From an uncultured Bacteroidales bacterium (GTDB lineage Bacteria > Bacteroidota > Bacteroidia > Bacteroidales > WCHB1-69), in contig ONAB01000010.1 in assembly GCA_900315705.1 (NCBI GenBank), positions 91,143 to 155,142 of the forward strand: a stretch of 64,000 nucleotides of DNA, written 5' to 3'. This document shows, piece after piece, positions 1 to 64,000 of the stretch. The notes under the pieces are model-generated. The model ran no database searches and was not told the origin of the DNA. It worked only from the letters and a program-made list of their open reading frames with translations. The translations under genes were made by a program, and so were the position numbers. The number at the start of each line of letters is the position of its first letter. Position 1 is the stretch's first letter.

Positions 1-1
1 C

Positions 2-913
2 GGCTTGGACGCCAACTTCCAGCGCAAATACACCACGATGCCCGTTCCTGAAGATATGAAGGGCTTCCAGGTTTGCGTCACCGGCCTGCACGGCGGCCAT
101 TCCGGTATGGACATCAACCTAGGTCGCGCCAATGCCAACAAGCTGTTGGTGCGCTGCATCACCAGTGCTGTGAAGCAGTTCGGCGCCTGTGTAGCCACCC
201 TCAACGGCGGCAGCCTGCGCAACGCCATCCCGCGCGAGGCCACAGCCATCATCGCCGTGCCCGCCAAGAAGGCCACCGCTTTCAAGACTTTCGTGAAGAA
301 GTACGAAGCCACTGTCAAGGCCGAATTCTCCGCCACCGAGGAGAACCTCGCCGTCAGCGTCAAGGCTGTTGACACTCCCAAGAAGGTCATCCGCACCAAG
401 GCTCAGAACCAGTTCCTCAATATGATCTTCGCCATCCCCAACGGTGTGGTCCGTATGAGCGACTCTATGAAGGACCTCGTGGAAACCTCCAACAACCTGG
501 CCAACATCAAGGCCGAGAACGGGGTTATGAGCGCCTGCTGCCTGCTGCGCAGCTCCGTTGACAGCGCCAAGGACGCCCTCGGCGACAAGATGTCCGCCAT
601 TGCCGAACTGGCAGAATGCGACATCGAGCTCACCGGCGCCTATCCCGGCTGGAAACCCAATATGGAGTCTCCGATTATGAACACCTGTATGAAGGTCTAT
701 AAGAAGAAATTCGGCAACGATCCCAAGGTGATGGCCATCCACGCCGGCCTCGAGTGCGGTCTGTTCGGCGCCTGCTATCCTGACTGGGATATGGTCTCCT
801 TCGGCCCCACCATTGAGCACCCGCACTCCCCCGTCGAGAGAGTGAACATCGACAGCGTGGGCAAGTTCTTCGACTTCCTCGTGGAAGTGCTGAAAAACAT
901 CCCCAAGAAGTAG
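2..913 (+). CDS. pepD: Aminoacyl-histidine dipeptidase PepD (5' end outside window)
   Basis: This is the C-terminal 303 residues of an M20-family cytosolic dipeptidase that cleaves Xaa-His (beta-alanyl-histidine type) dipeptides. The reading frame is open at the window edge, so the gene starts upstream; full-length PepD is about 485 residues. What remains includes the dimerisation-domain entry GLHGGHSGMDINLGRANANK and the C-terminal catalytic part with LECGLF (Glu ligand) and GPTIEHPHSP (His ligand), as in PepD. It ends at TAG in front of a clear terminator. Family assignment is strong; the first metal-binding half cannot be seen. Met codons are almost always preceded by a T-ending codon, an example of the CATG avoidance described in the findings. 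Confidence 0.93.
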   Translation, partial: GLDANFQRKYTTMPVPEDMKGFQVCVTGLHGGHSGMDINLGRANANKLLVRCITSAVKQFGACVATLNGGSLRNAIPREATAIIAVPAKKATAFKTFVKKYEATVKAEFSATEENLAVSVKAVDTPKKVIRTKAQNQFLNMIFAIPNGVVRMSDSMKDLVETSNNLANIKAENGVMSACCLLRSSVDSAKDALGDKMSAIAELAECDIELTGAYPGWKPNMESPIMNTCMKVYKKKFGNDPKVMAIHAGLECGLFGACYPDWDMVSFGPTIEHPHSPVERVNIDSVGKFFDFLVEVLKNIPKK

Positions 914-960
914 CGACTGGCTGTTGGCCATTGGCTATTAGCTATTATTGAAAGACAGGC

Positions 961-997
961 AACGGTTCCCGGGTTTCCCGGGGGCCGTTGTTTTTTT
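961..997 (+). terminator. Rho-independent terminator after pepD
   Basis: A 13-bp stem (two T-G wobbles) with a TTT loop at 961-989 is followed by seven T residues. It lies 47 bases after the pepD stop on the same strand. Confidence 0.8.
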
Positions 998-1090
998 GGC
1001 TATTGGAGTATGTTATGGCGGGGATACCGTCTGCAACAACATTTCTACACTCCTGTTTTTCTTTGTTCGCACAACCGTGCGGACGCACCA

Positions 1091-1145
1091 AAACTCCCCT
1101 TCTATTGTAGAAGGGGTGGCCGAAGGCCAGGGTAGTAATATAAAG
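1091..1145 (+). repeat. REP-like palindromic repeat, copy 1
   Basis: The core is a 9-bp stem with a 3-base loop (1096-1116, CCCCTTCTA/TAGAAGGGG), followed by a small GGCC-GAA-GGCC hairpin and a GGGTAGTAATAT tail. A second copy in inverted orientation lies at 1238-1303. The 914-1480 interval otherwise holds a terminator, short GGCTATTGGCTATT-like repeats just after pepD, and the promoter of the next gene; no gene is supported there. Confidence 0.6.
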
Positions 1146-1237
1146 AATACTAAATACCTTGACAGGGGAAAAAACAATCATCCACAATTCTTGAGACAAG
1201 GATATCCTGTCCGCAACCTTTCTACAAACAAGGAATT

Positions 1238-1303
1238 ATAATCCATATTAACTACCCCGCCCTTCGGGCACCCCTTCTGAAAATCAGAAGGGGAGTTGGC
1301 CCC
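1238..1303 (-). repeat. REP-like palindromic repeat, copy 2 (inverted)
   Basis: Read on the minus strand this matches copy 1 in order: AACTCCCCTTCT, a 10-bp stem (1271-1293, loop AAA), a GCCC-GAA-GGGC hairpin and a GGGTAGTTAATAT tail. The two copies therefore form a long imperfect inverted repeat around 1146-1237. Confidence 0.55.
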
Positions 1304-1418
1304 TCGCGGCACTGCCGTGCCACGGGTAAACAAGCAATGGGGAAAGAATCTCTTTGCTTTTACGGGGCAACTGCTATATCTTTGCCACCCATTTTTAACA
1401 ATCAATACTTAAAAATCG

Positions 1419-4541: not shown

Positions 4542-6803
4542 TTAAAAAGGTAAATCGTCAATTCTTTCGTGATGAGTTTCGAAATGAGAGAATCCGATTA
4601 AATGAGACCAAAACACCCCTGCATCCGTGACACCTTGATTGGTGTCATTGATTTCCCCATTTGGTAACAATTTAAAAAAATGTTTCATTCTATTACCCAT
4701 AGGATCAACATTGTTCGTCCCTGAATGTGTGGCCAAAACATAATGTCTTCCTCTTCCGGAATTAATTATTGACTCTGCTAATTGCTCCAATGAAATTGAT
4801 GTAATGTCAATTATGTTAGATAACAGATGAATTATAACCGGGTAGTGTATGGAAGGATGTACAAAATCTTCACCTACTGCAGGAAGCGAGGCACAAAAAA
4901 CATTAATCTCACACTCTTCCTTCATTGAATTCATATATCTTCGACACTCGTATACATTACTAACATATTTTTCAGCATTACTTAGTGCGCATTCACTTTT
5001 ATCTATTAAGGTTATCCTTCTTAAATTATGAATATTCTTTGTTGAAATATGTTCTATCAGGCCAATCGTAGCCAAACCTTGGCCACAGCCATAGTCAATC
5101 ACCTCAAATTCTTGAGAACCAAAACCAATATATTTCAAGTAAGTATCGTATAAACAATCTAATTTTTTCTTATGCGAAAAACCATAAGCTGCAAGATAAC
5201 AATCTGCTTGGAGTTCATCACTAATACATCCCTTTCCACTATTGATTATGTGCTCTTTATAATCCTCCCACGAACTGATATTCATATCTGCCAATCTTTT
5301 AACTGCATTATGAATAATTCTATTTGATGAATATGGCACAAGTTCAAACCCCATTGAGGCACACAATCTTACTAAAGCTGAGCCATTTTTATCTCGTTTT
5401 ATCTTATCGAAAACATCCTTCAATTCTGCATCCACCAATTTGTTTTTTTCTTTATTAGCAGCCGCTTTATGGAACCATCTGACTGCTTCTTCCAAATCTT
5501 GTTTCACGCCATTTCCTTGATCATAGCAGATTCCTAGCGCCCTTTGTGCCATGGCTTCGCCCTGTTCTGCCGCCCTAGTAAACCACTCCACAGCCTTTAC
5601 CATATCCTTCTCCACACCATACCCGTTATAATAGCTTAGTCCGAGGTTGAATTGCGCAATCTCATCCCCTTGTTCGGCAGCCTTTTTATACCACTCCACA
5701 GCCTTGACAAAGTTCTTTTCAACGCCCTTTCCATCATTATAGCAGTTTCCTAGCGCCCTTTGTGCTATGGCTTCGCCCTGTTCTGCTGCCTTGGTAAACC
5801 ACTCCACAGCCTTGAAAAAGTCCTTTTCCACGCCATCCCCGTTCTCATAGCAGCAACCAAGGTTGTATTGTGCAGCCACATCTCCCTGTTCTGCAGCCTT
5901 TTTATACCACTCCACCGCCTTGAATGCGTCCCTATCAACACCTATCCCATCTATGAAATAAATTCCTAGAACTCGTTGACCACGACGATAGCCTTTTTCT
6001 GCAACTTCTCGTACAAGTTTAAACGCTAATGAACAATCTTTATTTGTTCCAGCCCCACATTCATAACAACAGGCTAAACATACAATAGCTTCTTCGTTTC
6101 CTTGATCTGCCGATTGCTTAAAATAAAAAAAAGCGTTATTCTTATCTTTGGCAATTTCACAATAATACCGTCCTAATTTGAATTGTGCAGAAGCAAAACC
6201 TCGCTCTGCAGCCTTGGTATACCACTCTACCGCATTAACCATATCCTTCTCCACACCACACCCGTTTTCATAACAAACACCAAGAGTGAATTGCGCAGTA
6301 ACATAATCCTGTTCAGCAGCCCTGGTAAACAACTCGATAGCTTTATCGAGATTCTTTTCCACACCAATTCCACAATAATAGCAGCAGCCAAGGTTGAATT
6401 GTGCTCTGGTTTCCCCCTGTTCAGCTGCCTTCGTGTACCACTCCACAGCCCTAACAGAATCCTCCCCGACTCCGTCCCAATTCACATAATGTCCTTCGAT
6501 TTGAAATCGAGCATCTGTATCCCTCTGCACCTTCAAAATTGGAATATCTCTCAATCCAGAATGATGTCTTTCAAACTGAGATTTACTAACCATCAATTCA
6601 TAATCACTGTCCATCTCGTCAATCATAAATTGAATATTGCAACGCATAGAATCATCTTCCATGCTTACAAACATTAAATCTTGTTCACCTTCTCGAATTT
6701 CTAAATTAAAAAAAACGCCAGATTTGGCTATACCCTTTAGTTCACCAAAAAGGTAAATAATACAATCAGTTTCTGACTTGATGTGTAAGATGGATGTTCC
6801 CAT
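4542..6803 (-). CDS. Sel1-repeat protein with C-terminal SAM methyltransferase-like domain
   Basis: A 753-residue protein in three parts. Residues 1-105 have no recognised family. Residues 106-445 hold about nine 36-residue Sel1 repeats (consensus AVEWYTKAAEQG-AQFNLG-CY-NG-GVEK), a helical solenoid used for protein binding. The C-terminal third has VIDYGCGQG (568-576), which is motif I of a Rossmann SAM methyltransferase, then ITLIDKSECAL (acidic end of beta-2) and HLLSNIIDI. The same methyltransferase block occurs in the gene two positions upstream, fused there to leucine-rich repeats. No signal peptide, so cytoplasmic. The substrate is unknown. Two of the six CATG sites in the window (5550 and 6660) are here, which fits recent acquisition. 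Confidence 0.75.
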   Translation of the reverse strand: MGTSILHIKSETDCIIYLFGELKGIAKSGVFFNLEIREGEQDLMFVSMEDDSMRCNIQFMIDEMDSDYELMVSKSQFERHHSGLRDIPILKVQRDTDARFQIEGHYVNWDGVGEDSVRAVEWYTKAAEQGETRAQFNLGCCYYCGIGVEKNLDKAIELFTRAAEQDYVTAQFTLGVCYENGCGVEKDMVNAVEWYTKAAERGFASAQFKLGRYYCEIAKDKNNAFFYFKQSADQGNEEAIVCLACCYECGAGTNKDCSLAFKLVREVAEKGYRRGQRVLGIYFIDGIGVDRDAFKAVEWYKKAAEQGDVAAQYNLGCCYENGDGVEKDFFKAVEWFTKAAEQGEAIAQRALGNCYNDGKGVEKNFVKAVEWYKKAAEQGDEIAQFNLGLSYYNGYGVEKDMVKAVEWFTRAAEQGEAMAQRALGICYDQGNGVKQDLEEAVRWFHKAAANKEKNKLVDAELKDVFDKIKRDKNGSALVRLCASMGFELVPYSSNRIIHNAVKRLADMNISSWEDYKEHIINSGKGCISDELQADCYLAAYGFSHKKKLDCLYDTYLKYIGFGSQEFEVIDYGCGQGLATIGLIEHISTKNIHNLRRITLIDKSECALSNAEKYVSNVYECRRYMNSMKEECEINVFCASLPAVGEDFVHPSIHYPVIIHLLSNIIDITSISLEQLAESIINSGRGRHYVLATHSGTNNVDPMGNRMKHFFKLLPNGEINDTNQGVTDAGVFWSHLIGFSHFETHHERIDDLPF

Positions 6804-6852: not shown

Positions 6853-7995
6853 TCACAACATTTTTAAGGATGAAAAAACATACTGCTTGTTCCGACTAGA
6901 TACTTCACAAGAAACCTTAAAACCAATAGAAACTAAAACTTGCTCCAAATCAGATTCTTTATCATCCATATTCATACTTGTGAAGAACACCCCTTCATCA
7001 AACACACTCAACAAGGCACGTATCAACAGATTGTAGGATTCATTTCCTGCATACTGTTCATCTATGGCAATAATATCCAATTCATTGACAACTTTTTTCT
7101 TGTTAATGGACAACAATTCTTCGCTTAGCTTACAGACATGTGGAGTGATGAAGGCTGAGAGATCTCTCGTCAAATGCGATTTTGCGCGAGCCAAGCCGAT
7201 CAATTGTTTGTTTTGAAACATTCTTGTCACATACGAATTTTTATAATCATTATCCCAAGGTAATGCTATATTATGCCGTTGAACAAAGTCTTGTATTTGT
7301 TCAATCTCATCATTTTTCAAGCAATAAAAGGGCTTTGTATCGAATGATTTCATCTTACATCTCTCTCTTAACAGTTCTGCTTGAAAAATCCATTGTTTAT
7401 TTTCTAAAACCGTGGAATGGTTTATATCACATTTCACTCCAAGTTCCATTAGTTTTCGTTTTCTTTCTTGGAATTTGCTGTCATCTATATAAGGACTTAA
7501 GGTGATTTTTCGAATAAAACCATTGATGGGCAGATATCCTCCATTCAAACTCACAATCCTATACTCACTTTCATTTCGGTAAGGATATCTTTTGGTAAAC
7601 AATAATTCTTCAACATCATCAAAAGAAACTTCTTTCAGAACATCGTATTGGACTTCTTGACAACGATAGAGCGAGTGATACATATACTCCTCCAAAAGCT
7701 CTTTCTTTGCTAATTCAATACAACAGACATCCTTTCTTTCTTTATTTTTTGCAAAATATATCCAATGATATATCGTCTCATCATCATTTAAAAAACATAT
7801 TATTCCGACATTATCGTTATGAGTAATTTCTTTGTAAATCTCAACAAGTTTAGAATCATTCTTATCTTCCCAACCATCAAAGGATGTAGAGAATTTCAGT
7901 CCATTAGTAATAATGGATTCAAGCACATCGTACGTTGTGAAATGGTTCAATTTATTCATCCTATTCATAGAGCTATACAAGTTATTGTTTATCAC
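6853..7995 (-). CDS. DUF2971-like protein with GNAT-like C-terminal half
   Basis: A 380-residue soluble protein. The N-terminal half resembles DUF2971: HFTTYDVLESIITNGLKFS at the start and YPYRNESEYRIVSL at about residue 140, the latter being the family's typical E-Y-R-I-V strand. The C-terminal 150 residues have a GNAT-like order: a strand MFQNKQLIGLARAKS, a strand-helix ELDIIAIDEQYAGNESYNLL, and a final SIGFKVSCEV. The start is uncertain because Met 1, Met 10 and Met 13 are close together. It sits 34 bases after the methyltransferase-LRR gene and 49 before the Sel1-methyltransferase gene. The DUF2971 match is fairly good; acetyltransferase activity is only an inference from the fold order. 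Confidence 0.6.
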   Translation of the reverse strand: MINNNLYSSMNRMNKLNHFTTYDVLESIITNGLKFSTSFDGWEDKNDSKLVEIYKEITHNDNVGIICFLNDDETIYHWIYFAKNKERKDVCCIELAKKELLEEYMYHSLYRCQEVQYDVLKEVSFDDVEELLFTKRYPYRNESEYRIVSLNGGYLPINGFIRKITLSPYIDDSKFQERKRKLMELGVKCDINHSTVLENKQWIFQAELLRERCKMKSFDTKPFYCLKNDEIEQIQDFVQRHNIALPWDNDYKNSYVTRMFQNKQLIGLARAKSHLTRDLSAFITPHVCKLSEELLSINKKKVVNELDIIAIDEQYAGNESYNLLIRALLSVFDEGVFFTSMNMDDKESDLEQVLVSIGFKVSCEVSSRNKQYVFSSLKML

Positions 7996-18420: not shown

Positions 18421-18795
18421 CTACTTGGTCGCTTTCTTCTTGTTAGCAACAGTTTTCTTGCGGCCCTTACGAGTACGGGCGTTGTTCTTGGTGCTTTGAC
18501 CACGCACCGGTAAACCCAAACGGTGACGAATGCCTCTGTAGCAACCGATATCCATCAAACGTTTGATGTTCATCTGCTCTTCGGATCTGAGCGGTCCTTC
18601 CACCTTGAGTTCGTTAACCAATCCACGGATTACTGCCAACTCGTCGTCGTTCCATTCATTTACCTTCTTTTCCCAGCTGATACCGGCTTTCGTCAGAATC
18701 TTTTGAGCAGTGCTCCGACCGATTCCGTAAATATAGGTCAAACCGATTTCGCCATGCTTGTTTTTCGGTAAATCAATACCTGCAATTCTTGCCAT
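18421..18795 (-). CDS. rpsM: 30S ribosomal protein S13
   Basis: A 124-residue S13 starting [20 protein letters not shown] with the helix-two-turn-helix [18 protein letters not shown] and the basic C-terminal [20 protein letters not shown]. It sits at the 30S head and contacts the 50S subunit and P-site tRNA. One of the rare CATG sites in the window (18753) is in this gene. Confidence 0.97.
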
Positions 18796-23993: not shown

Positions 23994-26900
23994 TCAGTCG
24001 CGGAGACAGCGGACGGACTTACCGAACATCTTATTATTACCGTAAATACGCACATAGGCCATAGAGGAATTCAATTCGCAGCCTTTTGCATTGACGATGG
24101 AATTGGCATTATTGCCCTGCGTAGAAGAGGAGAAGTGGCTGCACCAACCCGCTTCAACGAAATCGTCGGAACCCCAACCCCAACCCGCTGGAACGGCGGA
24201 AAAGCCCGTGGTATTATTGTCACTTGAAGCATTACCAACATCACAGGTAGTGTTACTGCTTTGCCGCCATCCTTCCGTGGAAGCCAAGGCCTTAGCGACG
24301 TACGTGCTGTCGCCTCCACATAAAAATTGGCTCTGGCCGCTTATATAGTCGATCAACTGTTCCCATTCCTCCACTCTCGGCAAGTGCCAGCCCTCGGGGC
24401 AGACACCACGGCGGTTATCCGTAACATTCACCAATACGACATTGCTACGATCGGTATTCACGCTCGTCTCCCCATACACCATGTTGAAGGTATCCATCGC
24501 TGCGTTCCAGTTGTACAGCAACCCGTAGTTCTGCGGCGCGTAGGTTGTGGAGTCATTATTGTACCAGCGGGCCTGCTTGCCTGTATAGGTTCTGTCCGTG
24601 CCTACGGGCGGGATAAGGTACGTGCCCGTGCTTGGCGAGGTGGTGCAGCGCATATTCTCCTTCAGCCAGCACTGGTTGCCGATCTGCACCACGGCATAGC
24701 TGTTGTTCTGATGGTCGCGCACAGCCGTAATGGTGCCGTTACTGCCCGTCTCGTTGCTGTGGATAGAGGAGACACCGCAGGAGGTGGTGTTTCCAGGACC
24801 AGGCGTGTTGCCGGGCACAGTGACACTTACCTCATTACCATACGCCGTACCAACACTGTTGGTGGCGTAAGCGCGCACATAGTATATGTTCCCTGCTGTA
24901 AGACCTGAGATATTGCTGGTGAAACTGCCCACCCCACTGCCATCGGCAGTATGGTTGTCTGAGATTGTGGGGTTTTGATTGGTACTCCAGCAAACGCCTC
25001 GTGCCGTCACGGCTGCACCGCCATCCGAAGAGACATTTCCGCCACAGGTGGCTGATGTTGCCGTAACATTCTCCACAGCCGAAGTTGTGACTGTAGGCAA
25101 AATCGCCGCACTTGTTCCCCCATCATTCCTGAGACAGCGGACGGCAAACGCGTACTCCTTAAGGCCATAATCACGGAACACGCCGGCGTAGAGGTAGAAC
25201 AAAACCCGATACGACGCGTTGCCGCTATCGTATGGCGAAGACGACCAACAGTACACGCCCTGGCCACGGCCTAAGAAACGGCCGTTGTAGCCGCCAGACG
25301 GAACAGCGCTGAAGCCCGTGGCATTGCGCAATGCGTGGCTAAAATTACCCGGTGTGGCTTCACCACTATTATCGGATTGCCAATCCGCACCACCTGATAG
25401 CATTGAAGAAATAGCTGTGTTTCCTCCTTCAATCCTGGCATTGTTAGCCATAGTTTGAGAAGTCGGTGTCACCCCGGGCTGGTATATGCTCACAGCCGTG
25501 TTCATCAGAGTGGTCCACTCCGCATCGGTGGGCAAGTGCCAGCCCTCGGGGCAAATGCCACGGGCACCCTCAGCCGTGCTGCCGTCCATTGCGGCGGGCC
25601 AGTTGTAGAGCAGACCGTAGCCATCGGCGGCGTTGGCAGGGTTGTTGTCGTAATAGTAAGCGCGGCACACGGTGGCCGACATATTGGCCTGCACCGCAGG
25701 ATTTTCCACCATATTGGCACCCGTGCTCGGTGAGGTGGTGCAGCGCATATTCTCCTTCAGCCAGCACTGGTTGCCAATCTGCACCACGGCGTAGCTGTTG
25801 TTCTGATGGTCGCGCACGGCCGTAATGGTGCCGTTGCTGCCCGTCTCGTTGGCGCGCACAGAAGAGACCCCGCACGAGGTGGTGCTGCCGGGACCAGGCG
25901 TAGTGCCGGGCACTGTCAGGGTGATGATGTTGCCGTAGCCAGGGCCTTTGCTATTGGTGGCGTAGGCGCGGGCATAGTAGGTGGCGCCGGCGCTCACATC
26001 GGAAATCTGGCACACAAAACGGCCCAGCCCATCGCCCGTAATGCTGCTCGGCACAAGGGTGGCGTTCGACATATCGGAGGAGAGGCTCCACTGGATGCCA
26101 CGCTCGGCCACCTCCGCCCCGCCGTTGTCGGTCACTGCGCCCATCACGGCATCATACACTTGGTTAGCAGTGTTATAGCGTTCGATGGTAACCACCGTGG
26201 GCGGAGTGATGCCTTCAAGGAGGCGAACCACGGTACTCTGCGTGCAGCCGTTGGCATCTGTCACAGTGAGGGTATATTCGCCATCCTGGGCAAAAGTGTG
26301 CTGAAAAACACGCTGGGTGGTACCTGAAGTGGTGTAATCCAATCCATCCACATAAAAGTGGTACGGGGCAGTGCCGTTGTTGGCCACGAAACGCACCTGC
26401 AAGCCGTCCTGGTAGGTGCTGGTGGTGAGGTTGCAAGCAGGTGTGGCCTCCTGCACCGTATAGGTGGTGGTGGCCTTACAGCCGTTGTTGTCTCTCACGA
26501 AATAGGTGGTGCCAGGGACAAGCGGATAGGGAGCTGTATTTGACCAATTAATATTGTCGGAAGAATATTCTAAGAACAAATATCCGTAAGCGCCGTTGTA
26601 ACCGGAGGGTGACAGATGCCCATCGCGCACATCCAGGGTCAGCGTGGAGTTAGAGCAGACATTGTCGGCATAGAACCAAAGCGGAGAGCCCTCAATATGG
26701 TTGCCCTCACAGTCGAGCACACTGGCCTTAAGGGTCGGAGCAACAGTATTGTTGGGTTTCCAGTAGATCTGGGCGATGCCGTTGGTGTTGGTAGTGGCAA
26801 AGGCACTGGCAGAACCCGAACCTGAAGGGGTGGACGACACCACTCCGTCCGAGGCTTCAAAGAGGACTGTATTGCCGCTTCTCGGATCGCCATTATTCTT

Positions 26901-33968: not shown

Positions 33969-36017
<2,049 letters not shown>

Positions 36018-38223: not shown

Positions 38224-38246
38224 TTCATATCTCATACGCGATGATT

Positions 38247-39659: not shown

Positions 39660-39671
39660 AGCGCTATATTT

Positions 39672-40385
39672 TTAAAAAATACTCAACGAAATACCCACAG
39701 ACATCGGATATATCTTGGGGCCCTTGCCCGTGGTGAAGAGCGGGGTAACCTGGAAAGAGTAGTAGGCATCCACAAACTTCCAGCCGATACGGGCATACAC
39801 ATCCACGTTGTATTTCATCTTGTTCATCACGTGGAGATTCTTGATCATCAGGGTGTCATTGGCGTTGGCGGGGTTGTCGCCTTTGTACTTCTGGGAAACC
39901 TCACAGATAAGCCCAGCGCGCGCACCGATGGTGAACTTGAAGCCGTTTTCGTTCCTATAGCGGAACTCCAGCGGGATATTCACATTCAGATAATTCATCT
40001 TCAGCAACTTGTAGTTGACACCCTCGGGAAGAAGGTAATACCGCATCATATCGTCGGCGGCATCGTAGCGGAGCAACGCGTTGCTGTATTGCGTATAATA
40101 GGAGATGCCCACACCCAGACCTATGGCGATAGGTTTCTGCTTAATCTTGAAATCCCAAATAGCGGAAACGTTGAAGCCCGGGTCGAATTTCAGGTGATCG
40201 ACCTCAACAGGCATCCCCATCCAGAAGGTGTGGTAGATATCCATAATCAAGCGGTCGCGGAAGACCACAGGCTTCTTCTCGGCCTTGTCATCCTTGCCCG
40301 TATAGGGAGTCTGGGAAGTTTGCGCCATCACTCCTGATACACAAAGGCATAACAGCAGTGACAACGTCCATATTTTCTTTGCCAT
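39672..40385 (-). CDS. Outer-membrane beta-barrel protein
   Basis: A 237-residue exported protein (start at 40385; signal MAKKIWTLSLLLCLCVSGVM, cleavage after MAQ). The mature part has alternating strands typical of a small barrel (FNVSAIWDFKIKQKPIAIGL, MNYLNVNIPLEFRYRN, FKFTIGARAGLIC) and ends in MSVGISLSIF with a C-terminal Phe, the usual barrel assembly signal. The substrate is unknown. It precedes nhaD by 12 bases. Confidence 0.75.
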   Translation of the reverse strand: MAKKIWTLSLLLCLCVSGVMAQTSQTPYTGKDDKAEKKPVVFRDRLIMDIYHTFWMGMPVEVDHLKFDPGFNVSAIWDFKIKQKPIAIGLGVGISYYTQYSNALLRYDAADDMMRYYLLPEGVNYKLLKMNYLNVNIPLEFRYRNENGFKFTIGARAGLICEVSQKYKGDNPANANDTLMIKNLHVMNKMKYNVDVYARIGWKFVDAYYSFQVTPLFTTGKGPKIYPMSVGISLSIF

Positions 40386-40406
40386 ACGCTTAACAATTTT
40401 AAGCGG

Positions 40407-40414
40407 CAAAAATA
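40407..40414 (-). promoter_or_regulatory. -7 box of the barrel protein-nhaD operon
   Basis: TATTTTTG on the minus strand, 21 bases before the ATG and 10 bases after the stop codon of the TonB-type receptor gene. Confidence 0.45.
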
Positions 40415-40423
40415 CAAAAAAAA

Positions 40424-43033
40424 CTATTCTCCACCCATTCCTTCATATTCATCATCATCCGGCATTTTCATCGGACGGTTACGATAGTTGTTGAGTTTGT
40501 AAGTCAAGTTGACGGAGATGTTAAATCCCTGATTTTCACGAAGACTATAGGAGTAGTAACCACTTTGGGCATCTGCATTCGGCTCGTAAAGTTCGTCATA
40601 GACAGCGCAATTCTGCCACGAGGCGATTTGCGTCTGGCGGACCGCTGGGATAAAATAAAGGAGATTGCGGATGTTGACGCTCAGAATCAAAGAGTTGTCC
40701 AGGAATCCCTTCTTGACACCCAGGTTGAGGCGGTAGTTGGCAGAGCGTCTCCCCTGCCCCACACCGCGCAAGCCCCAGCCCATACTGCCGGCGGTCAGCT
40801 GCGAGGAGCGATAGCGGAAATCGAGCTGGATGTCGAAGTTCTTGCCCACCGTGAAGGTCTGGTTCACGCCGGCATTCCAGGCCCAGTCGCGCGTCAGGTT
40901 CTCGTCGAGCAAACCCGACTGGTCAATGACATTGCGGTAGAAACTGCCCGTGACACCGAGCTTGTACACCTTCTTCACGCGCTGGCTGAAAGAGAACTCC
41001 AAACCGAAATTCTGGCTCTTGTTGAGATTGGCGTAGGAGGTCAGCGTATAGACCCTGTCGGCGACAGAATCCTGCAGTATTTCCGTGTAACGGGTAATCA
41101 GGTTGGTGCGGCGGCGGTAGAAGGCCGTCAGCGTGAGCGACGTCTGCTTGTGGGTGAACATATAGCCCAGCTCCAAAGAGTTGGCGAATTCAGGCTCCAG
41201 GGCCGGATTGCCCTGCTGCAGGTTCTCGCGGTCGGAATAGTCGATGAAGGGGTTGAGCTGATGGATACGCGGGCGCTGTACACGGCGCGAGAAGCTGGCC
41301 TGCAAGGAGTGCTCCGGCGTGATCATATACTTCAAATGCACCGTCGGGAAGAAGAAATTCTTGGCAAAATGGTTGTAGTTCACATAGGTATATACCAAAT
41401 CGGAAGACTTCAGGTCGGAGATGGTGTAGGAGACCTCACCGCGCAAGCCCAACTGCACCTGCAGCTTCTTCCAGAAGGTGTTGGAGTAAATGAAATAGAG
41501 GGCGTTGATGAGTTCCGTATATTGGAAATTATTGCGTTGCAGGGAGTCCTCCCGCATATTCTCCTCGGTGGTGCCGGCAAAGAGGGAGTAGTCCTGCCCC
41601 ACCCCACGGTACGAGAACTTATAGCCCGTCTCGATGCGTCCGCCGTTGCCCACGGGCGTCACGAAGTCCACCTGGGCCGAGGCATCACGGTTAAGTTCCA
41701 GCGTTTGCGTATGCTGGTAAAGGTCATTCATCCCTTCGTGATGGCGCTGCGTCAGGAAGTCGTTATGATCGCCGTTGCGCTGGGTGAAATAGAGGTCGGC
41801 GGTCAGCTCGCGCCCCTGCGTGGGGAAGGTCTTCTTGTAGTTCACGGAAGCGTCATAGCTGTTGAACCGGTTCCCGTTGTTGCCAGTCTGGTCATAACTC
41901 ACGAGCGTGTCGCGGTTATGGGAGGTCAGCGACCACATATTGCTTGACCAGTTCATACGCCCGAAATGGCCGCCGAAATTGAAAGTGAGAGTATTATATT
42001 TATTAATATAGTAATCAAAAGCCAAGGAGACGTTGTGGAAACCGTTGCGGGAGCCACCATAGTTCTCCTGCTCCATACGGGTGATCTCGCGGTCATCGCC
42101 GATGCCGAACCAAGAGTCGCGCCACAGGCTGCCGGCATTGCGCCAGCTGCCGCCGCGATAACCGTAGCTCACGAAAAGGTTGATTTTGTTGTAACGGAAG
42201 TTGAGACTCAGATTGCCGTTGTAGCCGCTGAGATAGAAATGGTGTTTCCCGTCATAGTGCAGCAGGGCCGTGCTGGCGCCAATGGAGGCCATACCGTTAA
42301 AGCTGGACTCGCGTCTCTTTTTCAGCACCACGTTGAGGATTCCGGCCATTCCGTCGGGCTCGAGGCGCGCCGAGGGGTTGGTGATGACCTCGATACTCTC
42401 AATCATATCGGCGGGGATCTGGTCAAGCGTCAGGTTCGTGGCGTGCCCGTCCACCAGGATAGTGACATTCTCGCTGCCGCGCAGACTCACATTCCCGTCC
42501 ACATCGACGGATATCGAGGGTATCTCCTCCAGCACCTCCACGGCCGTCTGGCCCGTGGCGTTGATACTCGACTCCACATTGAACACCGTCTTGTCGAGGT
42601 TGGTCTGCAGCATATCCTTCTGCGCACGGATGACCACCTCGCCCAACTCGGAGGTCTTGTCGGTCATCTTGTATTTGTTGATCCTATACACCGCATTCTC
42701 CTTGGAAATCGTGAAAGGGGCTGACGTGGACTTCTGATAGCCCACATACTGTATCTCCACAAAATACTGGCCAAAGGGGATGCCATCGAGGGTGAACTTG
42801 CCATCAGCGTCGGTGATACCATACTGCACCGTGATGGAGTCAGCCACCCGCTTCACGTTGACAGAGGCGTACTGCAGGGGAATTCCGGCGCCATCCACGA
42901 TGGTGCCCGTCACAACACCGCTATTATGATTCTGGGATTGAGGGCGTTGCATTTCAGGCTGGGCCGTGGCCACACCTATCGACGACAAAAATGTGAAAAG
43001 GAGAATGAGGGAGTAGTTGTATAGGTTCTGCAT
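40424..43033 (-). CDS. Outer-membrane receptor with carboxypeptidase-like domain, plug and barrel
   Basis: An 869-residue exported protein (signal ending about ATAQ). Residues 40-115 are a carboxypeptidase-regulatory-like domain (VVTGTIVDGAGIPLQYASVN, VGYQKSTSAPFTI). Residues 125-235 are a plug (ELGEVVIRAQKDMLQTNLDK, VDGNVSLRGSENVTILVDGH, IEVITNPSARLEPDGMAGIL). The rest is a large beta-barrel of the 'outer membrane beta-barrel family 3' type. No SusD partner is adjacent, so it is not a typical Sus system; a peptide or metal uptake role is possible but unproven. It lies downstream of the ppiD terminator. Confidence 0.87.
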   Translation of the reverse strand: MQNLYNYSLILLFTFLSSIGVATAQPEMQRPQSQNHNSGVVTGTIVDGAGIPLQYASVNVKRVADSITVQYGITDADGKFTLDGIPFGQYFVEIQYVGYQKSTSAPFTISKENAVYRINKYKMTDKTSELGEVVIRAQKDMLQTNLDKTVFNVESSINATGQTAVEVLEEIPSISVDVDGNVSLRGSENVTILVDGHATNLTLDQIPADMIESIEVITNPSARLEPDGMAGILNVVLKKRRESSFNGMASIGASTALLHYDGKHHFYLSGYNGNLSLNFRYNKINLFVSYGYRGGSWRNAGSLWRDSWFGIGDDREITRMEQENYGGSRNGFHNVSLAFDYYINKYNTLTFNFGGHFGRMNWSSNMWSLTSHNRDTLVSYDQTGNNGNRFNSYDASVNYKKTFPTQGRELTADLYFTQRNGDHNDFLTQRHHEGMNDLYQHTQTLELNRDASAQVDFVTPVGNGGRIETGYKFSYRGVGQDYSLFAGTTEENMREDSLQRNNFQYTELINALYFIYSNTFWKKLQVQLGLRGEVSYTISDLKSSDLVYTYVNYNHFAKNFFFPTVHLKYMITPEHSLQASFSRRVQRPRIHQLNPFIDYSDRENLQQGNPALEPEFANSLELGYMFTHKQTSLTLTAFYRRRTNLITRYTEILQDSVADRVYTLTSYANLNKSQNFGLEFSFSQRVKKVYKLGVTGSFYRNVIDQSGLLDENLTRDWAWNAGVNQTFTVGKNFDIQLDFRYRSSQLTAGSMGWGLRGVGQGRRSANYRLNLGVKKGFLDNSLILSVNIRNLLYFIPAVRQTQIASWQNCAVYDELYEPNADAQSGYYSYSLRENQGFNISVNLTYKLNNYRNRPMKMPDDDEYEGMGGE

Positions 43034-43047
43034 AACGGTTTTTTTAA

Positions 43048-43096
43048 CAAAAAAAGGCGTGGACTAAATCCATTCAAGTAGGTTTAATCCACGCCT
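43048..43096 (-). terminator. Terminator of rplY-ppiD
   Basis: On the minus strand AGGCGTGGATTAAACC pairs with GGATTTAGTCCACGCCT (16-17 bp, nine-base loop), followed by T7. Confidence 0.88.
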
Positions 43097-43121
43097 GTTA
43101 TTTATAATATTTTTACAACTA

Positions 43122-45281
43122 TTATTTCTGATAGAAACGGCCTCTGTTGTCGAGAACCTTAGCTTTAGAAATCAAATAGTTGATGATGGTGATCTCGTTG
43201 CGCTCACGGCCGAGGAGGGCATTGCGGAGGATGTTCTTCTCCATCATATAACCCGGGGTGGCCGCGTTGTTGTTGGTACCGAGCACATTGACCACATAGA
43301 CCATATTCTGGCCATTGACGGCGGTCGGTTTGTTGGTGGGCAGAGAGAAAATCTTGCCGATGGCCTTGCCGTCCACGTTGCGGTTTTGATAGATATCGCC
43401 AGCGAAGGAGAGATAAACGCTGTCGATAACCTGGGTGCCATATTGCTGCGCCAGAGCCTGCATATTGGAGGAAGCGAGGGCCTTGTTGACCTGCTCAGCC
43501 ACCATTTCGGTCTTCTTCTGGGCGGCCAGCATATCCTTGACATCGTCTTTCACATCCTTGAACTTCTGCGTGCCGATCTCGCGCACGTTGCGCACAGCGG
43601 CCACGGCAAGGAACATACGCTCCACGTTGAACACGTCGGAGATGTCGTCCTTCTTGACATCATCGGAGAATGCCCAGCTCACGATATCGCGGCAGTTGGG
43701 CAGCTGGTTGATGACGGAAGCCATAGAGAGGATGTTGTTGCCTTGCACCACTTGGATACCCTTCTTGGCGGCGGTGCTGGTCAGTTCCTCCGCGTTGTTG
43801 ATGGATGCGGCAAACTGGTTAGCCTGCGACTTGAGGTTGTTGAGGGTAGCCTCGGAAGCGACGATGTCGTAGTCATACAGCACAAACTGTCTCTTCTCGA
43901 TAGGAACAGTGCGGTTGAGCAGTTGGAACACGATATAGCCATTCGGAGCCTTATAGACATAGATGCCGCCATTGGGCGTCCCAATCAGTCCGTTGTAGAG
44001 GGCGGTGATGGTACCGCGCTCCGGAATCCAGAAAGTGGAGTCACCGGCGGTGTTGGCAGAGAAGTCCTTGCGCAGTTGGAAGATGTTGGCCTGGTTGCTC
44101 AGCAGCACGTTCTTAAGACTGTCGGCCAGCAGACGGGCCTCTTTCTTGGAGTACTTGGCGCCAGTGTTCTGGGCGGTCTTGAAGGGGAGTTCGACAGTAG
44201 CCACGAAGACAGAGTCGGGACGGGAGGCACCGCCATAGACCTTGCCGAAATACCATTTCTGGTTCTCGTAAGCGAAGGGTTCGATGTAGCTGCCCACCGG
44301 CAACTTGAAGATGAGACTGTCAAGCACGTCGAGAGTGATATCCTCGCTCTTGTAGTAGGTGCTGTCCACGGAGCCGTTGCCCTTCTCGGTGCTGTAAGCC
44401 AGCAGGTCGGAGGTGGAGAACTTGGCGAAATCCTCGCGCACCTCTTTCTCGATGGCCTGCAGGTCCTCGGGAGTCGGGTTGATGGGGAACACAGCCACGT
44501 CAATGTCGCGGTTTCTCTCATACACCGTGAAGAGGTCTTTCTTGTGGGTGTTGAAGAAATCCTTGGCCTCGTTGTCGGACACCTCGGCGGTGACGTTGTT
44601 GAAGGCGGGGCCTTGCGGGTTGACGAACATCACGGAAGCCAAAGCCATTTTGTTGTCAGCGGCGAGTTTCTTCGCGAGCGGGTCGGAGAAATAGACGGAA
44701 TTCTGCACGAGGGCGGAATAGCGGTTGGATTTCTCGGCGGAGAGGGCGAAGCGCACGATGGACTGGTAGGCATTGTACAGGTCGCGAGTCTGGTCGTTGT
44801 TGGCATAATCCTCGATGTTGGAGATGACGGCCATCGCGTTCTCGGGGCCCACCTGCTCGGCCAGTGCCTGGGCGAACTGCATCAGGTACTGGTTGGGTTG
44901 TTGGGTGCTGAGAGAAGCCATCATATCAGCCTTGAAGTCCTCAATCATCTGGTCGTTGTAGGCGAGACCCAACTTGGCCAGTTGTTTGTCGAGAACCTGT
45001 TCTTGGAGAATGTTACGCCACGTCATCTCGTGAATCTGGTAAGTCTCATTCTCGTCGAAGGAAGTCTTTTTCTGAAGGAGTTTCATCAACGCGGTGTTCT
45101 CCTCGTATTGCTTGCTGTAGATATTGTCCAACTTCGTGCCGTCGATGCGGGCCACGGTATTCTTGTTGGAGAAGGTGCGGGTCACTTGGGAAAGGTCGCC
45201 CAAGATGAAGGCCAGCATAGCAAGACCGATGATGATCATCAAGGCCACACCGTGTTTGCGTATTGAGCCAATTGCTGCCAT
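43122..45281 (-). CDS. ppiD: PpiD/SurA-like periplasmic peptidyl-prolyl isomerase
   Basis: A 719-residue protein anchored by one N-terminal helix (VALMIIIGLAMLAFILGDLS) with a long periplasmic part. Residues 40-170 are a SurA-type chaperone domain (EMTWRNILQEQVLDKQLAKL), and a parvulin-like region lies around 340-450 (GSYIEPFAYENQKWYFGKVY). Further repeats and coiled segments follow. In Bacteroidetes this family replaces PpiD and assists folding of outer-membrane proteins. It starts 36 bases after rplY. A frame of more than 600 codons on the opposite strand is a shadow. Confidence 0.88.
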   Translation of the reverse strand: MAAIGSIRKHGVALMIIIGLAMLAFILGDLSQVTRTFSNKNTVARIDGTKLDNIYSKQYEENTALMKLLQKKTSFDENETYQIHEMTWRNILQEQVLDKQLAKLGLAYNDQMIEDFKADMMASLSTQQPNQYLMQFAQALAEQVGPENAMAVISNIEDYANNDQTRDLYNAYQSIVRFALSAEKSNRYSALVQNSVYFSDPLAKKLAADNKMALASVMFVNPQGPAFNNVTAEVSDNEAKDFFNTHKKDLFTVYERNRDIDVAVFPINPTPEDLQAIEKEVREDFAKFSTSDLLAYSTEKGNGSVDSTYYKSEDITLDVLDSLIFKLPVGSYIEPFAYENQKWYFGKVYGGASRPDSVFVATVELPFKTAQNTGAKYSKKEARLLADSLKNVLLSNQANIFQLRKDFSANTAGDSTFWIPERGTITALYNGLIGTPNGGIYVYKAPNGYIVFQLLNRTVPIEKRQFVLYDYDIVASEATLNNLKSQANQFAASINNAEELTSTAAKKGIQVVQGNNILSMASVINQLPNCRDIVSWAFSDDVKKDDISDVFNVERMFLAVAAVRNVREIGTQKFKDVKDDVKDMLAAQKKTEMVAEQVNKALASSNMQALAQQYGTQVIDSVYLSFAGDIYQNRNVDGKAIGKIFSLPTNKPTAVNGQNMVYVVNVLGTNNNAATPGYMMEKNILRNALLGRERNEITIINYLISKAKVLDNRGRFYQK

Positions 45282-46114: not shown

Positions 46115-46732
46115 ATGAAAAAAGACAACAAACTATATATATTGGCTTTGCTATTGATGACATGCTTATGTGGATGTGCGGTGCAAAAAAACGAAACAAA
46201 AAGTAACGCTTTCTTGTACAGGCCATTCGAGTATTCTCCCGCCTATATAGTCAAATTGCCACCCGGCTGCAAAATAGAGTATGTTATATACCAGGGCGAA
46301 AGAACCTACGGTTATGCTTTTTCCTATCACGATGCAACATTTTATATCAGCGATGGGAACACCTATTATGATAAAAGTTATAATGTTCACCTCCGAGACT
46401 CTTTGTACAATTCTCTTTTAGAAATGCAAAAAATATATAAGTCTGGAAAAAACATAAATATTCCCATAAAGGGCACCATATATTTAGGTGGAGGTGCCGG
46501 ATCTTTTTGGAGAGATTGTTTGTATTATAATTTAGAAAATTCAAATCATTTATTTGGAGTAAGCAATATTGGCTTTGAGCATTTATATGTAGTATATGCG
46601 AATGCGTCCGAGAGAGACACCGCTGTGTTAAATGAATGCATTTCTTCCGCAATCCGAGTCGAAAAGCCCGTAAAAAGACACAGGGCCAACAAGATTATCA
46701 AATACAGTTTCAATGGAAAAAAAGCACAATGA
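46115..46732 (+). CDS. Lipoprotein of unknown function
   Basis: A 205-residue lipoprotein; the Met at 46115 gives MKKDNKLYILALLLMTCLCG with a lipobox LCGC. An earlier in-frame ATG at 46082 would add basic residues and spoil the signal. The mature part includes YRPFEYSPAYIVKLPPGCKI and FWRDCLYYNLENSNHLFGVS, with no known motif. AT-rich relative to pfkA next to it. One of the rare CATG sites (46161) is in its signal sequence. I do not recognise the family. Confidence 0.65.
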   Translation: MKKDNKLYILALLLMTCLCGCAVQKNETKSNAFLYRPFEYSPAYIVKLPPGCKIEYVIYQGERTYGYAFSYHDATFYISDGNTYYDKSYNVHLRDSLYNSLLEMQKIYKSGKNINIPIKGTIYLGGGAGSFWRDCLYYNLENSNHLFGVSNIGFEHLYVVYANASERDTAVLNECISSAIRVEKPVKRHRANKIIKYSFNGKKAQ

Positions 46733-61910: not shown

Positions 61911-61951
61911 CCGATTGAGACAAGGAGGTCATTGTTTCAGAAAAACTACTG

Positions 61952-62812
61952 TTAGATTCTGTCGAGAACCATACGGATCAAAGTCTCCATCTTGTCGTGA
62001 TAGTCGTCGAGAAAACGGCCCGTCACGCGGTTGGCGATGATGAGGCATACCGTAAGAGCATTGTGTCCCAGCACGTTGCCCAAGCCATAGATGGCCGAAC
62101 ACTCCATCTCCATATTGGTAATGCTCTTGCCCTGATAGTGGAACGACTCTATCTTCCGGTTGAGTTCGGGGTAAGCCAGCGGGGCACGCACCTGACGGCC
62201 TTGCGGGCCAAAGAAGCCCGGAGCGCTGACGGTGATGCCCTGGCGCATATCGTGTCCGATGCGGTCGAGCAGCGCCTGTGACGCGGGGGTGCAATAGGGC
62301 CGGGGCAACTGCGCGCTCCAACCTGTCTGCGCCACAAACTCGTCCACCATCCGCTCGTCTATCCATTGGCCGGAGTCGTAAAACCTCAGCACCCCGTCGA
62401 TGCCCAGACCATAGGCGGAAGCAACGAAAGAGCCGCACTCGATGTCGGGCTGCAGGCCCCCGGAGGTACCGATGCGCACCATATTGAGGGTGCGGTGCTC
62501 AGCCTTCTCCTCGCGTGTGGCCAGGTCTATGTTGGCCACAGCGTCCAGTTCGTTGAGCACAATGTCGATATTGTCGGTGCCCATTCCCGTGGAGATGGCC
62601 GAGATGCGCTTGCCCTTGTACAATCCTGTGTGGGTAATCAACTCGCGGTTGCTCTTCTCCACCTCGATGGTGTCGAACATTTTGGAAATCATCTGCACAC
62701 GCCCGGGGTCGCCCACCAGTATGATGTTGTCGGCCAACTCGTCGGCGTGCAGGTTGAGATGATAAATGGCGCCGTCTTTTTGCTGCGGCAATTCAGATGC
62801 TGCGATTTTCAT
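61952..62812 (-). CDS. Nucleoside phosphorylase (uridine phosphorylase type)
   Basis: A 286-residue PNP/UDP-family enzyme; the start at 62812 follows the -7 box. IILVGDPGRVQMISKMFD is the phosphate-binding start, NMVRIGTSGGLQPDIECGSF the central motif, and ITNMEMECSAIYGLGNVLGH binds the ribose. The sequence is nearer uridine phosphorylase than hexameric PNP, but base specificity cannot be fixed from sequence alone. It salvages nucleosides in the cytoplasm. Convergent with the TPK gene, 41 bases apart. Confidence 0.9.
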   Translation of the reverse strand: MKIAASELPQQKDGAIYHLNLHADELADNIILVGDPGRVQMISKMFDTIEVEKSNRELITHTGLYKGKRISAISTGMGTDNIDIVLNELDAVANIDLATREEKAEHRTLNMVRIGTSGGLQPDIECGSFVASAYGLGIDGVLRFYDSGQWIDERMVDEFVAQTGWSAQLPRPYCTPASQALLDRIGHDMRQGITVSAPGFFGPQGRQVRAPLAYPELNRKIESFHYQGKSITNMEMECSAIYGLGNVLGHNALTVCLIIANRVTGRFLDDYHDKMETLIRMVLDRI

Positions 62813-62834
62813 AGTAGTCGTTTTAAACAGGTTG

Positions 62835-62842
62835 CAAACATA
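62835..62842 (-). promoter_or_regulatory. -7 box of the nucleoside phosphorylase gene
   Basis: TATGTTTG on the minus strand, 22 bases before the ATG. Confidence 0.5.
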
Positions 62843-62890
62843 CACAAAAAAACAAAGCCGACCGCATATTTTTTCATTCCATTTCAAACA

Positions 62891-62925
62891 TAAAAAAAGG
62901 CCCCTTTTGAGAAGGAGCCTTTTTC
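62891..62925 (-). terminator. Terminator of the T9SS cargo gene
   Basis: AAGGCTCCTT, five-base loop, AAGGGGCCTT on the minus strand (10 bp with one wobble), then T7. A T run also follows on the plus strand. Confidence 0.82.
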
Positions 62926-62965
62926 ACACTATTATTTACCCTTTTCAATTATCGTCCTGACCACA

Positions 62966-64000
62966 TTACGGTCTGACAATAATCTTTTTGCTGACTACTT
63001 GTCCGTCGGACAAGAGTATTCTGAGGAAGTAGTTGCCCGGCGCATAGCCGCTCAACTGGATCTGGACATATTTATCGTCTTCGGCCTCGACCATCTGGAC
63101 GAGCTTGCCCAAGCCGTTATAGACCTGGATGCGGCGCATATCTTCGCCCTTGATATTCACCACGGTGGTGGCGGGGTTCGGATAGACCGTGAACTCGCGC
63201 TGCTCTGCCACGTGCTGCTCGATGCCGTAGTTGAAGGCAACGTGCAACGTCAGGTGGATGATACTGTCGCAGCCGTCAATCGTGAAGTTCTGGATATCGT
63301 ACGTGAAGGTACCAGAGTCTGCAGGCGTGATCGTCAGGCCATAGCCCACATACTCGTGGTTACGCAAAGCAGAATCCTCCACGAATATCTCGTAGGTCGG
63401 GGTCAGGATCAGGTCAAGCACATAGACACTGTCGCAACCGCTCTGGGTCTGATAGGTGTCGTAATAGACGCCCGCAGTGTCATACGTATGGCCACGCCAC
63501 TCATACGGCTGGTTGTCGCAAGTGGAGGCGTAGGTAACAAACTCGTATGTTCTGTTCACCGTCAGCAGGAGCGTCACCGTGCTGTCGCAACCGGCGGCAC
63601 TCGTATGGAGGCTCTGCATCTGCACCGTACCATAACTGGCCGGAATCGTGTCGAAACCAAACTGTGCATAATGCTCACCTTGGCAGATGGTATCATACAG
63701 CACCGTGTGCGGAGTCGGGTTCACCGTCAGCAGCAACTCATAGATGTCGGAGCATCCATAGCTGTTCGGAATCGTATCGGTGTAGTGGCCGGAAGCGTTG
63801 AGTTGGAGACCACGCCAGCTGTACGGCAGGGAGCTGCTGCACACCGTGGCAGTGTCATACTGGTGGTCAACCGGGTTCACCGTCAAGGTCAACGTATAGA
63901 CGCTGTCGCAACCGGCAACCGTCTGCAGGTTGTCGTAATAGACGCCCGTGGTGGTCAGGCTCTGGCCGTGCCAGTTGTAAGGCACCGCGTCAGCGCAGAG
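62966..64000 (-). CDS. T9SS cargo protein, C-terminal part (5' end outside window)
   Basis: The C-terminal 344 residues of a large surface protein; the frame is open at the right edge. It has at least three repeats of about 70 residues, each with a PY-W-G or similar start, a tyrosine-rich middle and CDSVYTLTLTVNP or GCDSTVTLLLTVN, as in long Bacteroidetes adhesin-like repeat proteins. The final 75 residues are a type A T9SS sorting domain (FTVYPNPATTVVNIKGEDMR, IQLSGYAPGNYFLRI, KKIIVRP), which directs export through the type IX system and attachment at the surface. This shows that the organism has a T9SS. Confidence 0.9.
   Translation of the reverse strand, partial: LCADAVPYNWHGQSLTTTGVYYDNLQTVAGCDSVYTLTLTVNPVDHQYDTATVCSSSLPYSWRGLQLNASGHYTDTIPNSYGCSDIYELLLTVNPTPHTVLYDTICQGEHYAQFGFDTIPASYGTVQMQSLHTSAAGCDSTVTLLLTVNRTYEFVTYASTCDNQPYEWRGHTYDTAGVYYDTYQTQSGCDSVYVLDLILTPTYEIFVEDSALRNHEYVGYGLTITPADSGTFTYDIQNFTIDGCDSIIHLTLHVAFNYGIEQHVAEQREFTVYPNPATTVVNIKGEDMRRIQVYNGLGKLVQMVEAEDDKYVQIQLSGYAPGNYFLRILLSDGQVVSKKIIVRP

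What the first reader, a model, noticed from the sequence alone, without database searches (positions are those of the whole stretch)
1..64000. Near-total avoidance of the tetranucleotide CATG
Reading the window by eye I found only six CATG (5550, 6660, 7137, 18753, 24480, 46161). About 250 would be expected in 64 kb of even composition. The bias reaches into coding sequence: in GC-rich genes where codons otherwise end in C, the codon before ATG is switched to a T-ending one (GAT ATG, AAT ATG, CGT ATG, ATT ATG, GGT ATG, TCT ATG, TGT ATG in pepD, ettA, pfkA and the sirtuin). CATATG and GATC are not avoided. Such avoidance of one palindrome usually reflects long exposure to a restriction enzyme with that target (NlaIII or FatI type), a methylation-dependent nuclease, or a fixed hazard of the modified site. 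I infer that the lineage has or had a CATG-directed restriction system.
Basis: partly seen in the sequence, partly recalled or inferred. Interest (0 to 1): 0.8.

Follow-up and report, generated by a model that had tools for sequence, protein, structure and literature searches.

The report
Genome purged of CATG restriction sites
This gut bacterium has lost almost every CATG from most of its genes, very probably because it carries a DNA-cutting defence enzyme of the family that cuts CATG; the effect is known, but this is an unusually complete and readable example.

Summary
The window has exactly six CATG, at the stated positions, against 202 ± 9 when synonymous codons are shuffled. It lies in a 3.0 Mb draft Bacteroidales genome, where 19 readable sampled stretches hold 142 CATG against 1,915 expected. 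The inferred cause is present: another contig encodes a full-length ICEA/NlaIII-family endonuclease (E 1e-106), in an operon with two methyltransferase genes and a weakly EVE-like gene. Three congeners have only 83–109 bp there and CATG at 0.57–0.88 of expectation. Of 18 CATG inferred ancestral none survives in the window, while 63% of tetramers so inferred do. Remaining CATG is clustered, much of it in low-GC genes, several defence-like. Below 0.1 of expectation are 3 of 5 carriers and 1 of 63 non-carriers, in a sample not drawn blindly. Limits: two carriers are not depleted, one deeply depleted genome lacks the gene, and CATG cleavage was not tested. Restriction-site avoidance is a known phenomenon; this is a strong new case with a variant operon.

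The parts
1..64000 (.). CATG-depleted chromosomal tract (G000:C18:91143-155142), 6 CATG in 64 kb
   Evidence: the operon taken as the cause lies outside the window, at G000:C4:51317-55079, minus strand
5550..5553 (.). residual CATG 1, inside ORF 4542-6803 (Sel1-repeat protein)
6660..6663 (.). residual CATG 2, same ORF 4542-6803
7137..7140 (.). residual CATG 3, inside ORF 6853-7995 (no Pfam match)
18753..18756 (.). residual CATG 4, inside ORF 18421-18795 (ribosomal protein S13)
24480..24483 (.). residual CATG 5, inside ORF 23994-28718 (Fib_succ_major domains)
46161..46164 (.). residual CATG 6, inside ORF 46082-46732 (no Pfam match)
33969..45281 (-). stretch used to find homologous DNA in congeners; no CATG of eight congeners survives at homologous places here

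Best explanation
The genome is host to a CATG-cutting Type II restriction-modification system of the NlaIII/IceA1 kind. Shown: a complete ICEA-family gene sits in an operon of four genes, namely an HPPY-motif methyltransferase, the ICEA protein, a protein with weak EVE and weak NucS-like matches, and a D12-class methyltransferase. The operon stands where three congeners have only 83-109 bp, and CATG present in congeners, and by inference in the ancestor, is gone from the window. Inferred: the enzyme cuts unmethylated CATG, the methyltransferases protect the host incompletely, and each extra CATG carries a small cost of self-cutting or of death if the operon is lost. Mutations that destroy CATG are then favoured and new CATG is removed. 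One transition can remove CATG synonymously in each of the three reading frames (CAT to CAC, NCA to NCG, NNC to NNT), so the purge need not harm proteins. DNA that arrived recently still carries CATG.
For: ICEA family hit, full length, E 1e-106, in the same genome. Operon with an N6_N4 methyltransferase (4e-23) and a D12 methyltransferase (1e-48). Same four-gene operon in G002, which was noticed for its low CATG (pooled 0.021), and a three-gene form in G325, found by the gene and then measured at 0.007. By the tally no other congener searched has the gene. Empty sites in G410, G424 and G428. Sister CATG kept in the window: 0 of 30, 0 of 29, 0 of 46, 0 of 20, 0 of 19, 0 of 19, 0 of 55 and 0 of 5 for eight congeners, while 36-59% of all tetramers are kept. 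Inferred ancestral CATG kept: 0 of 18, against 4,621 of 7,337 for all tetramers so inferred. The 24 sampled genes with 2 or more CATG per kb have mean GC 0.405, the 224 without CATG 0.534. Of three viral-collection loci with ICEA homologues two are low in CATG (0.11, 0.054) and one is not (0.64). Literature: orthodox Type II sites under-represented in 850 of 1,774 site-genome pairs, more often for long-lived systems (PMC4687349).
Against: Two of five carriers show no deep avoidance: G408 at 0.76 and G453 at 0.91; G453's operon sits on a 5.5 kb contig whose CATG (0.21) differs from its other contigs (0.95-1.16), so it may be mis-binned. G001 avoids CATG at 0.014 without an ICEA gene; its cause was not found. 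By rank test the carrier effect is not significant (P 0.076), and with only the three carriers found by the gene first Fisher gives 0.11. CATG is shared between G410/G424/G428 and G414/G419/G433 at only 0-14% of sites, where 39-46% of all tetramers are shared, although each group shares it with G233 at 35-53%, so CATG turnover in the genus is not simple. The operon is compositionally foreign (GC 0.36 in a genome near 0.53) yet itself poor in CATG (3 against 18.9), so it was either purged too or came from a CATG-avoiding donor. Specificity for CATG is taken from family membership, not measured.
Confidence: 0.85

Rival explanations
1. An earlier, now lost CATG restriction system purged the genome, and the present operon arrived later in a lineage already poor in CATG.
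For: G001 is deeply depleted without an ICEA gene. The operon is low-GC and CATG-poor. Some ICEA-negative congeners are moderately low: G434 0.205 on 6 kb, G016 0.284, G431 0.331. G410 and G424 have a nearly CATG-free tract opposite window 33968-39968, and CATG sharing between two groups of congeners is low.
Against: It needs two systems of one specificity where one suffices. All 18 CATG inferred ancestral were lost on the window's lineage, the only one searched in the genus that carries the gene.
Confidence: 0.11
2. The depletion follows from codon usage, mutation bias or general avoidance of palindromes, with no restriction enzyme involved.
For: CTAG, GATC, CATATG and GTCGAC are also low in this genome and its relatives.
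Against: Synonymous shuffles keep codon use and protein and give 202 against 6. Of 16 palindromic tetramers only CATG differs strongly from relatives. Other genes of the same contigs keep CATG.
Confidence: 0.01
3. Assembly or library artefact, such as loss of reads with CATG.
For: The genome is a 47-contig draft whose nearest ettA relatives are titled rumen and gut metagenome assemblies.
Against: Clusters of CATG sit in the same contigs as CATG-free genes. At homologous places CATG is replaced by one-base variants such as TATG, GATG or CATA in long alignable DNA.
Confidence: 0.01
4. A methylation-dependent nuclease (such as the EVE-like third gene) or a mutational hazard of methylated CATG, rather than the ICEA nuclease, drives the purge.
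For: The third gene has a weak EVE match (0.0062) and a weak NucS match (0.035). EVE-PD(D/E)XK fusions are described as putative modification-dependent restriction enzymes (PMC7641849, passages). In Rusinov 2015 38 of 54 modification-dependent Type IIM pairs were under-represented, all for GATC.
Against: G325 has deep avoidance and no such gene in its operon; G408 has the gene and no deep avoidance. Rusinov 2015 lists 0 of 13 under-represented Type IV pairs.
Confidence: 0.02

Closest known systems
NlaIII (Neisseria lactamica) and IceA1/HpyI (Helicobacter pylori) CATG restriction-modification systems
   Same: The endonuclease matches Pfam ICEA over nearly the whole profile. IceA1 is reported 52% identical to NlaIII (PMC2749054, passage), and its CATG recognition is stated in the title of a paper seen only in a reference list. 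A D12-class methyltransferase gene lies in the same operon. That NlaIII cuts CATG is recalled.
   Different: The five Bacteroidales operons have a second methyltransferase with an HPPY motif, and three of the five a further gene with weak EVE/NucS matches. The H. pylori pair is described as iceA1 beside hpyIM (PMC13340068, passage).
Restriction-site avoidance by hosts of orthodox Type II systems (Rusinov et al. 2015)
   Same: Host genome depleted of the site of a resident Type II system; some carriers not depleted and some depleted genomes without the system, as that paper reports and reads as effects of lifespan and loss (abstract, passages and sections 12 and 19 seen).
   Different: The depth: about 0.03 of expectation in the window, where that paper's threshold is 0.78 on its own measure. 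How deep its own extremes go was not seen.
EVE-PD(D/E)XK modification-dependent restriction enzymes
   Same: The third protein has a weak N-terminal EVE match and a weak NucS-like match in its C-terminal part.
   Different: It is encoded inside a Type II-like operon here; the fold could not be modelled (mean pLDDT 41).

Membership tests
ICEA/NlaIII endonuclease family (PF05315) | full-length match above the curated cut-off | tested here: met
   355.7 bits against a cut-off of 24, profile 1-213 of 218, no stops inside
ICEA/NlaIII endonuclease family (PF05315) | conserved HNH-like core across members | tested here: met
   D-H-K-D-G-R-K and K-A-A-N invariant in the five proteins aligned; that this is the HNH core is recalled
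ICEA/NlaIII endonuclease family (PF05315) | cleavage at CATG | not testable with these tools
   inferred from family and from the depletion; needs the protein
orthodox Type II restriction-modification system | separate endonuclease and methyltransferase genes side by side | tested here: met
orthodox Type II restriction-modification system | methylation of the same site | not testable with these tools
   no long-read signal available
restriction-site avoidance | site under-represented beyond composition and codon use in a genome encoding the system | tested here: met
restriction-site avoidance | weaker or absent in close relatives without the system | tested here: met
   by tally no other congener searched has the gene; pooled relatives 0.754; single congeners range from 0.205 to 0.961
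EVE-PD(D/E)XK modification-dependent enzyme | EVE domain plus PD-(D/E)XK nuclease core | tested here: inconclusive
   EVE 17.0 bits under a cut-off of 23; NucS-like 0.035; best solved-structure match NucS at 0.068; model too poor to use

The most novel reading that the evidence does not exclude
The host is on the way to replacing methylation by sequence as its mark of self: most of its genes are free of the target, so the nuclease can tell foreign DNA by the presence of CATG itself, and the methylated sites left lie mainly in recently acquired, partly defence-bearing islands. CATG density would then be a per-gene clock of arrival in this genome.
Probability: 0.12. Interest if true: 0.72.

Novelty: new member of a known kind. 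Interest (0 to 1): 0.5.

Why it matters
The likely cause, relatives lacking the insertion and the fate of single sites can all be seen in one genus, so the rate at which a restriction system reshapes its host could be measured rather than inferred from correlations. If CATG density marks recent arrival, it gives a way to date acquired genes and to spot introgressed tracts in this lineage that does not rest on base composition. The operon type (two methyltransferases, ICEA nuclease, sometimes a further possible nuclease) is worth biochemical study.

Tried and rejected
Mutation or codon bias and assembly artefact were tested and found very unlikely.

The third gene as the cause was set aside because G325 lacks it in its operon and is deeply depleted.

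For G001 (7 CATG against 497, no ICEA gene) I looked for another CATG system by D12 and N6_N4 methyltransferase families only. Its two D12 genes sit beside a 687-aa protein in a stretch that itself holds CATG, so they are unlikely to be the old cause. An HNH-like 119-aa protein near a 443-aa methyltransferase and a 631-aa frame remain possible. Unsolved.

Structure predictions of the ICEA protein (mean pLDDT 34) and the third protein (41) were too poor for any fold search, and none was made. 16S rRNA was not found in the assembly. The plasmid collection gave one weak ICEA relative, the phage collection none. Literature searches for CATG avoidance gave nothing direct as judged from their listings; this is no proof that it is not in print.

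Weak points of the carrier statistics. The 63 non-carriers are no random sample: G003-G005 were taken because their CATG was low, G006-G015 for ettA likeness. Genomes reached through named loci may be the same as unnamed handles (G005 and G434 share a contig length of 161,991), so some may be counted twice; without G003-G015 the table is 3 of 5 against 1 of 50, Fisher 0.0015. G000 and G002 were noticed by their low CATG before the gene was sought; of the three carriers found by the gene first, 1 of 3 is deeply depleted (Fisher 0.11). Two genomes with weak ICEA matches below the cut-off (G147, G206) were treated as non-carriers. Of 79 genomes fetched for the table 11 were dropped for under 4,000 readable bases: G019, G020, G030, G034, G035, G040, G051, G206, G420, G421, G426. 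Measured later and not in the table: G1039, with a distant ICEA-like protein (38 bits) between the same two kinds of methyltransferase genes, at 0.48-0.57; G964 0.51 and G1034 0.42, with weak matches below the cut-off.

Full report
WHAT WAS CLAIMED AND WHAT IS THERE. The window holds exactly six CATG, at the six stated positions. Expected numbers are 233 (maximal-order Markov), 341 (order-1) and 202 ± 9 when the synonymous codons of 50 ORFs are shuffled 100 times (minimum 184). All six lie in the ORFs picked: two in a Sel1-repeat gene, one each in the genes for ribosomal protein S13 and a Fib_succ_major protein, two in ORFs without Pfam match. The codon-level signature is stark: before ATG a pyrimidine wobble base is T 172 times and C 3 times, while before the other AT-starting codons it is T 261 and C 499. 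His before G is CAC 97 and CAT 2. Of 64 NCN codons before TG one is NCA. The side claims on CATATG and GATC do not hold: CATATG is at 3 against 16.3, and at 18 against 121 in the genome sample, but relatives show the same.

THE GENOME. The window is G000:C18:91143-155142 of a 2,995,600-base draft in 47 contigs. By its ettA gene it belongs with Bacteroidales assemblies from rumen and other gut samples. Nineteen readable stretches on other contigs (367,996 bases; a twentieth reads N) hold 142 CATG against 1,915 by order-1. With the window this makes 148 in 431,996 bases, 0.085 by maximal order, against 0.754 in 496,236 bases of relatives. At that density the whole genome would hold roughly 1,000 sites (inference), so methylation is still needed.

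THE CAUSE. A search with Pfam ICEA, the family of IceA1, found one full-length gene in this genome (E 1e-106) and one in the genome of locus L041 (0 CATG against 92 expected), and none in the 14 others searched. The operon reads, in order: a 271-aa methyltransferase of the N6_N4 family (4e-23) with an HPPY motif, invariant in the five homologues aligned; the ICEA protein; a 389-aa protein with a weak EVE match; and a 359-aa D12 methyltransferase (1e-48). IceA1 is reported 52% identical to NlaIII (PMC2749054, passage). A paper titled as showing IceA1 to be CATG-recognizing was seen only in a reference list and is not held. That the present protein cuts CATG is therefore inference from family plus the depletion itself.

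THE INSERTION AND THE LOSS. By its tally, the family-wide search of 105 genomes found the gene in no other member of the genus. In three congeners the DNA on either side of the operon is 83, 95 and 109 bp apart (G410, G424, G428), against about 4 kb here. In DNA aligned around window 33969-45281 not one sister CATG survives in the window: 0 of 30, 29, 46, 20, 19, 19, 55 and 5 for eight congeners, while 36-59% of all tetramers are kept (many of these sites are shared, and 110 distinct places carry CATG in at least one congener). Of 18 CATG inferred ancestral, because found both in one of G410, G424, G428 and in one of G414, G419, G433, G233 (G434 left out), none is kept, against 4,621 of 7,337 for all tetramers so inferred; at 63% kept, chance gives 2e-8. 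Against a simple history, G410/G424/G428 share few CATG with G414/G419/G433 (0-14%, where 39-46% of all tetramers are shared), though each group shares them with G233 at 35-53%. The commonest replacement against G410 and G428 is TATG, that is, C to T. Around the lost sites the encoded amino acids are the same at 17 of 27 sites for G410, 18 of 29 for G424, 29 of 43 for G428, 9 of 20 for G414 and 28 of 55 for G233. In each frame CATG can be lost by one synonymous transition, which follows from the genetic code.

WHERE CATG REMAINS. Of 274 sampled genes 224 have no CATG (187 expected if the sites were spread evenly). Twenty-four genes with 2 or more per kb hold 69 of 117 genic sites, and have mean GC 0.405 against 0.534 for genes without CATG. 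Ten of the 24 were scanned: six matched Pfam families that are defence-like or common on mobile DNA (DpnII-MboI endonuclease, AbiH, two AAA_21 ATPases, GIY-YIG, Fic), one matched DUF6602 and three matched nothing. An N6_Mtase gene lies in the same stretch as the AbiH gene. The simplest reading is that these arrived after most of the purge. The operon itself has GC 0.36 and 3 CATG against 18.9 expected.

HOW GENERAL. ICEA is rare: over the cut-off in 2 of 393 genomes drawn from the order, 3 of 105 in the family, 2 of 395 from the phylum (one a 31-residue fragment) and 2 of 395 from the class (one a distant 38-bit match); this genome is one of the hits each time and the draws overlap. Among 68 genomes sampled for CATG, 3 of 5 carriers and 1 of 63 non-carriers are below 0.1 (Fisher 0.0008); by rank the difference is not significant (0.076). 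The sample was not drawn blindly and may count some genomes twice (see Tried and rejected). Against a simple rule stand G408 (0.76) and G453 (0.91) with the gene and no deep avoidance, and G001 (0.014) with deep avoidance and no gene. Rusinov et al. 2015 report both kinds of exception and explain them by recent gain and past loss (abstract, passages, sections 12 and 19). Of three loci of the viral collection with ICEA homologues two are low in CATG (0.11 over 6.8 kb, 0.054 over 12.5 kb) and one is not (0.64); one of them (L162) has an SPPY methyltransferase ORF just before the ICEA ORF.

MECHANISM AND STRENGTH. Self-restriction is a recognised driver: a modelling paper (PMC6629147, passages) states that site avoidance can lower self-restriction in bacteria. 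As an inference from a two-state mutation-selection-drift balance, a residual of about 0.02 needs a scaled selection of only about 4 per site, so near-total purge asks for time and a steady small cost rather than a large one.

VERDICT. The phenomenon is known. The value lies in its completeness, in the partly recoverable history, and in the two-methyltransferase operon.

Noticed in passing
L197 (G410) and L198/L199 (G424), opposite window 33968-39968: A tract with 0-1 CATG per kb at 85-94% identity to the window gives way near window 39968 to 4-8 per kb (2 in the last kb) at 76-89% identity; G428 has 2-7 per kb over the part aligned. It looks like introgression from a CATG-avoiding lineage.
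   Followed up: partly
sample of this genome and relatives: CATATG (0.15 here, 0.18 in relatives) and GTCGAC (0.07 here, 0.28 in relatives) are strongly avoided; cause not sought.
   Followed up: no
G001 (L028, L121-L124, L228): Deep CATG avoidance (7 against 497) without any ICEA-family gene; another CATG system or a lost one is expected there.
   Followed up: partly
L277:4594-7345 (G1039): The same HPPY and D12 methyltransferase types flank a different HNH-like protein with only 38 bits to ICEA; CATG there is 0.48-0.57.
   Followed up: partly
L108:750-904 (G002): Four of the five CATG on this 18.6 kb contig sit around the start of the first methyltransferase gene; the fifth is at base 1. They might serve autoregulation by methylation; no CATG lies at that place in G000 or G325.
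   Followed up: no
L161 and L162 (viral collection): ICEA homologues: in L161 just after an ORF with the HPPY methyltransferase's C-terminal part and downstream of tail-like genes, in L162 just after an SPPY methyltransferase ORF; tail-like is a reading by eye.
   Followed up: no
L096:7086-7820 (G000:C12): A DpnII-MboI-family endonuclease gene in a CATG-rich island of the same genome.
   Followed up: no
L089 (G000:C5) and L008 (genome G005): The two share at least one exact 60-mer, the only such match among the pairs compared; perhaps DNA exchanged recently.
   Followed up: no
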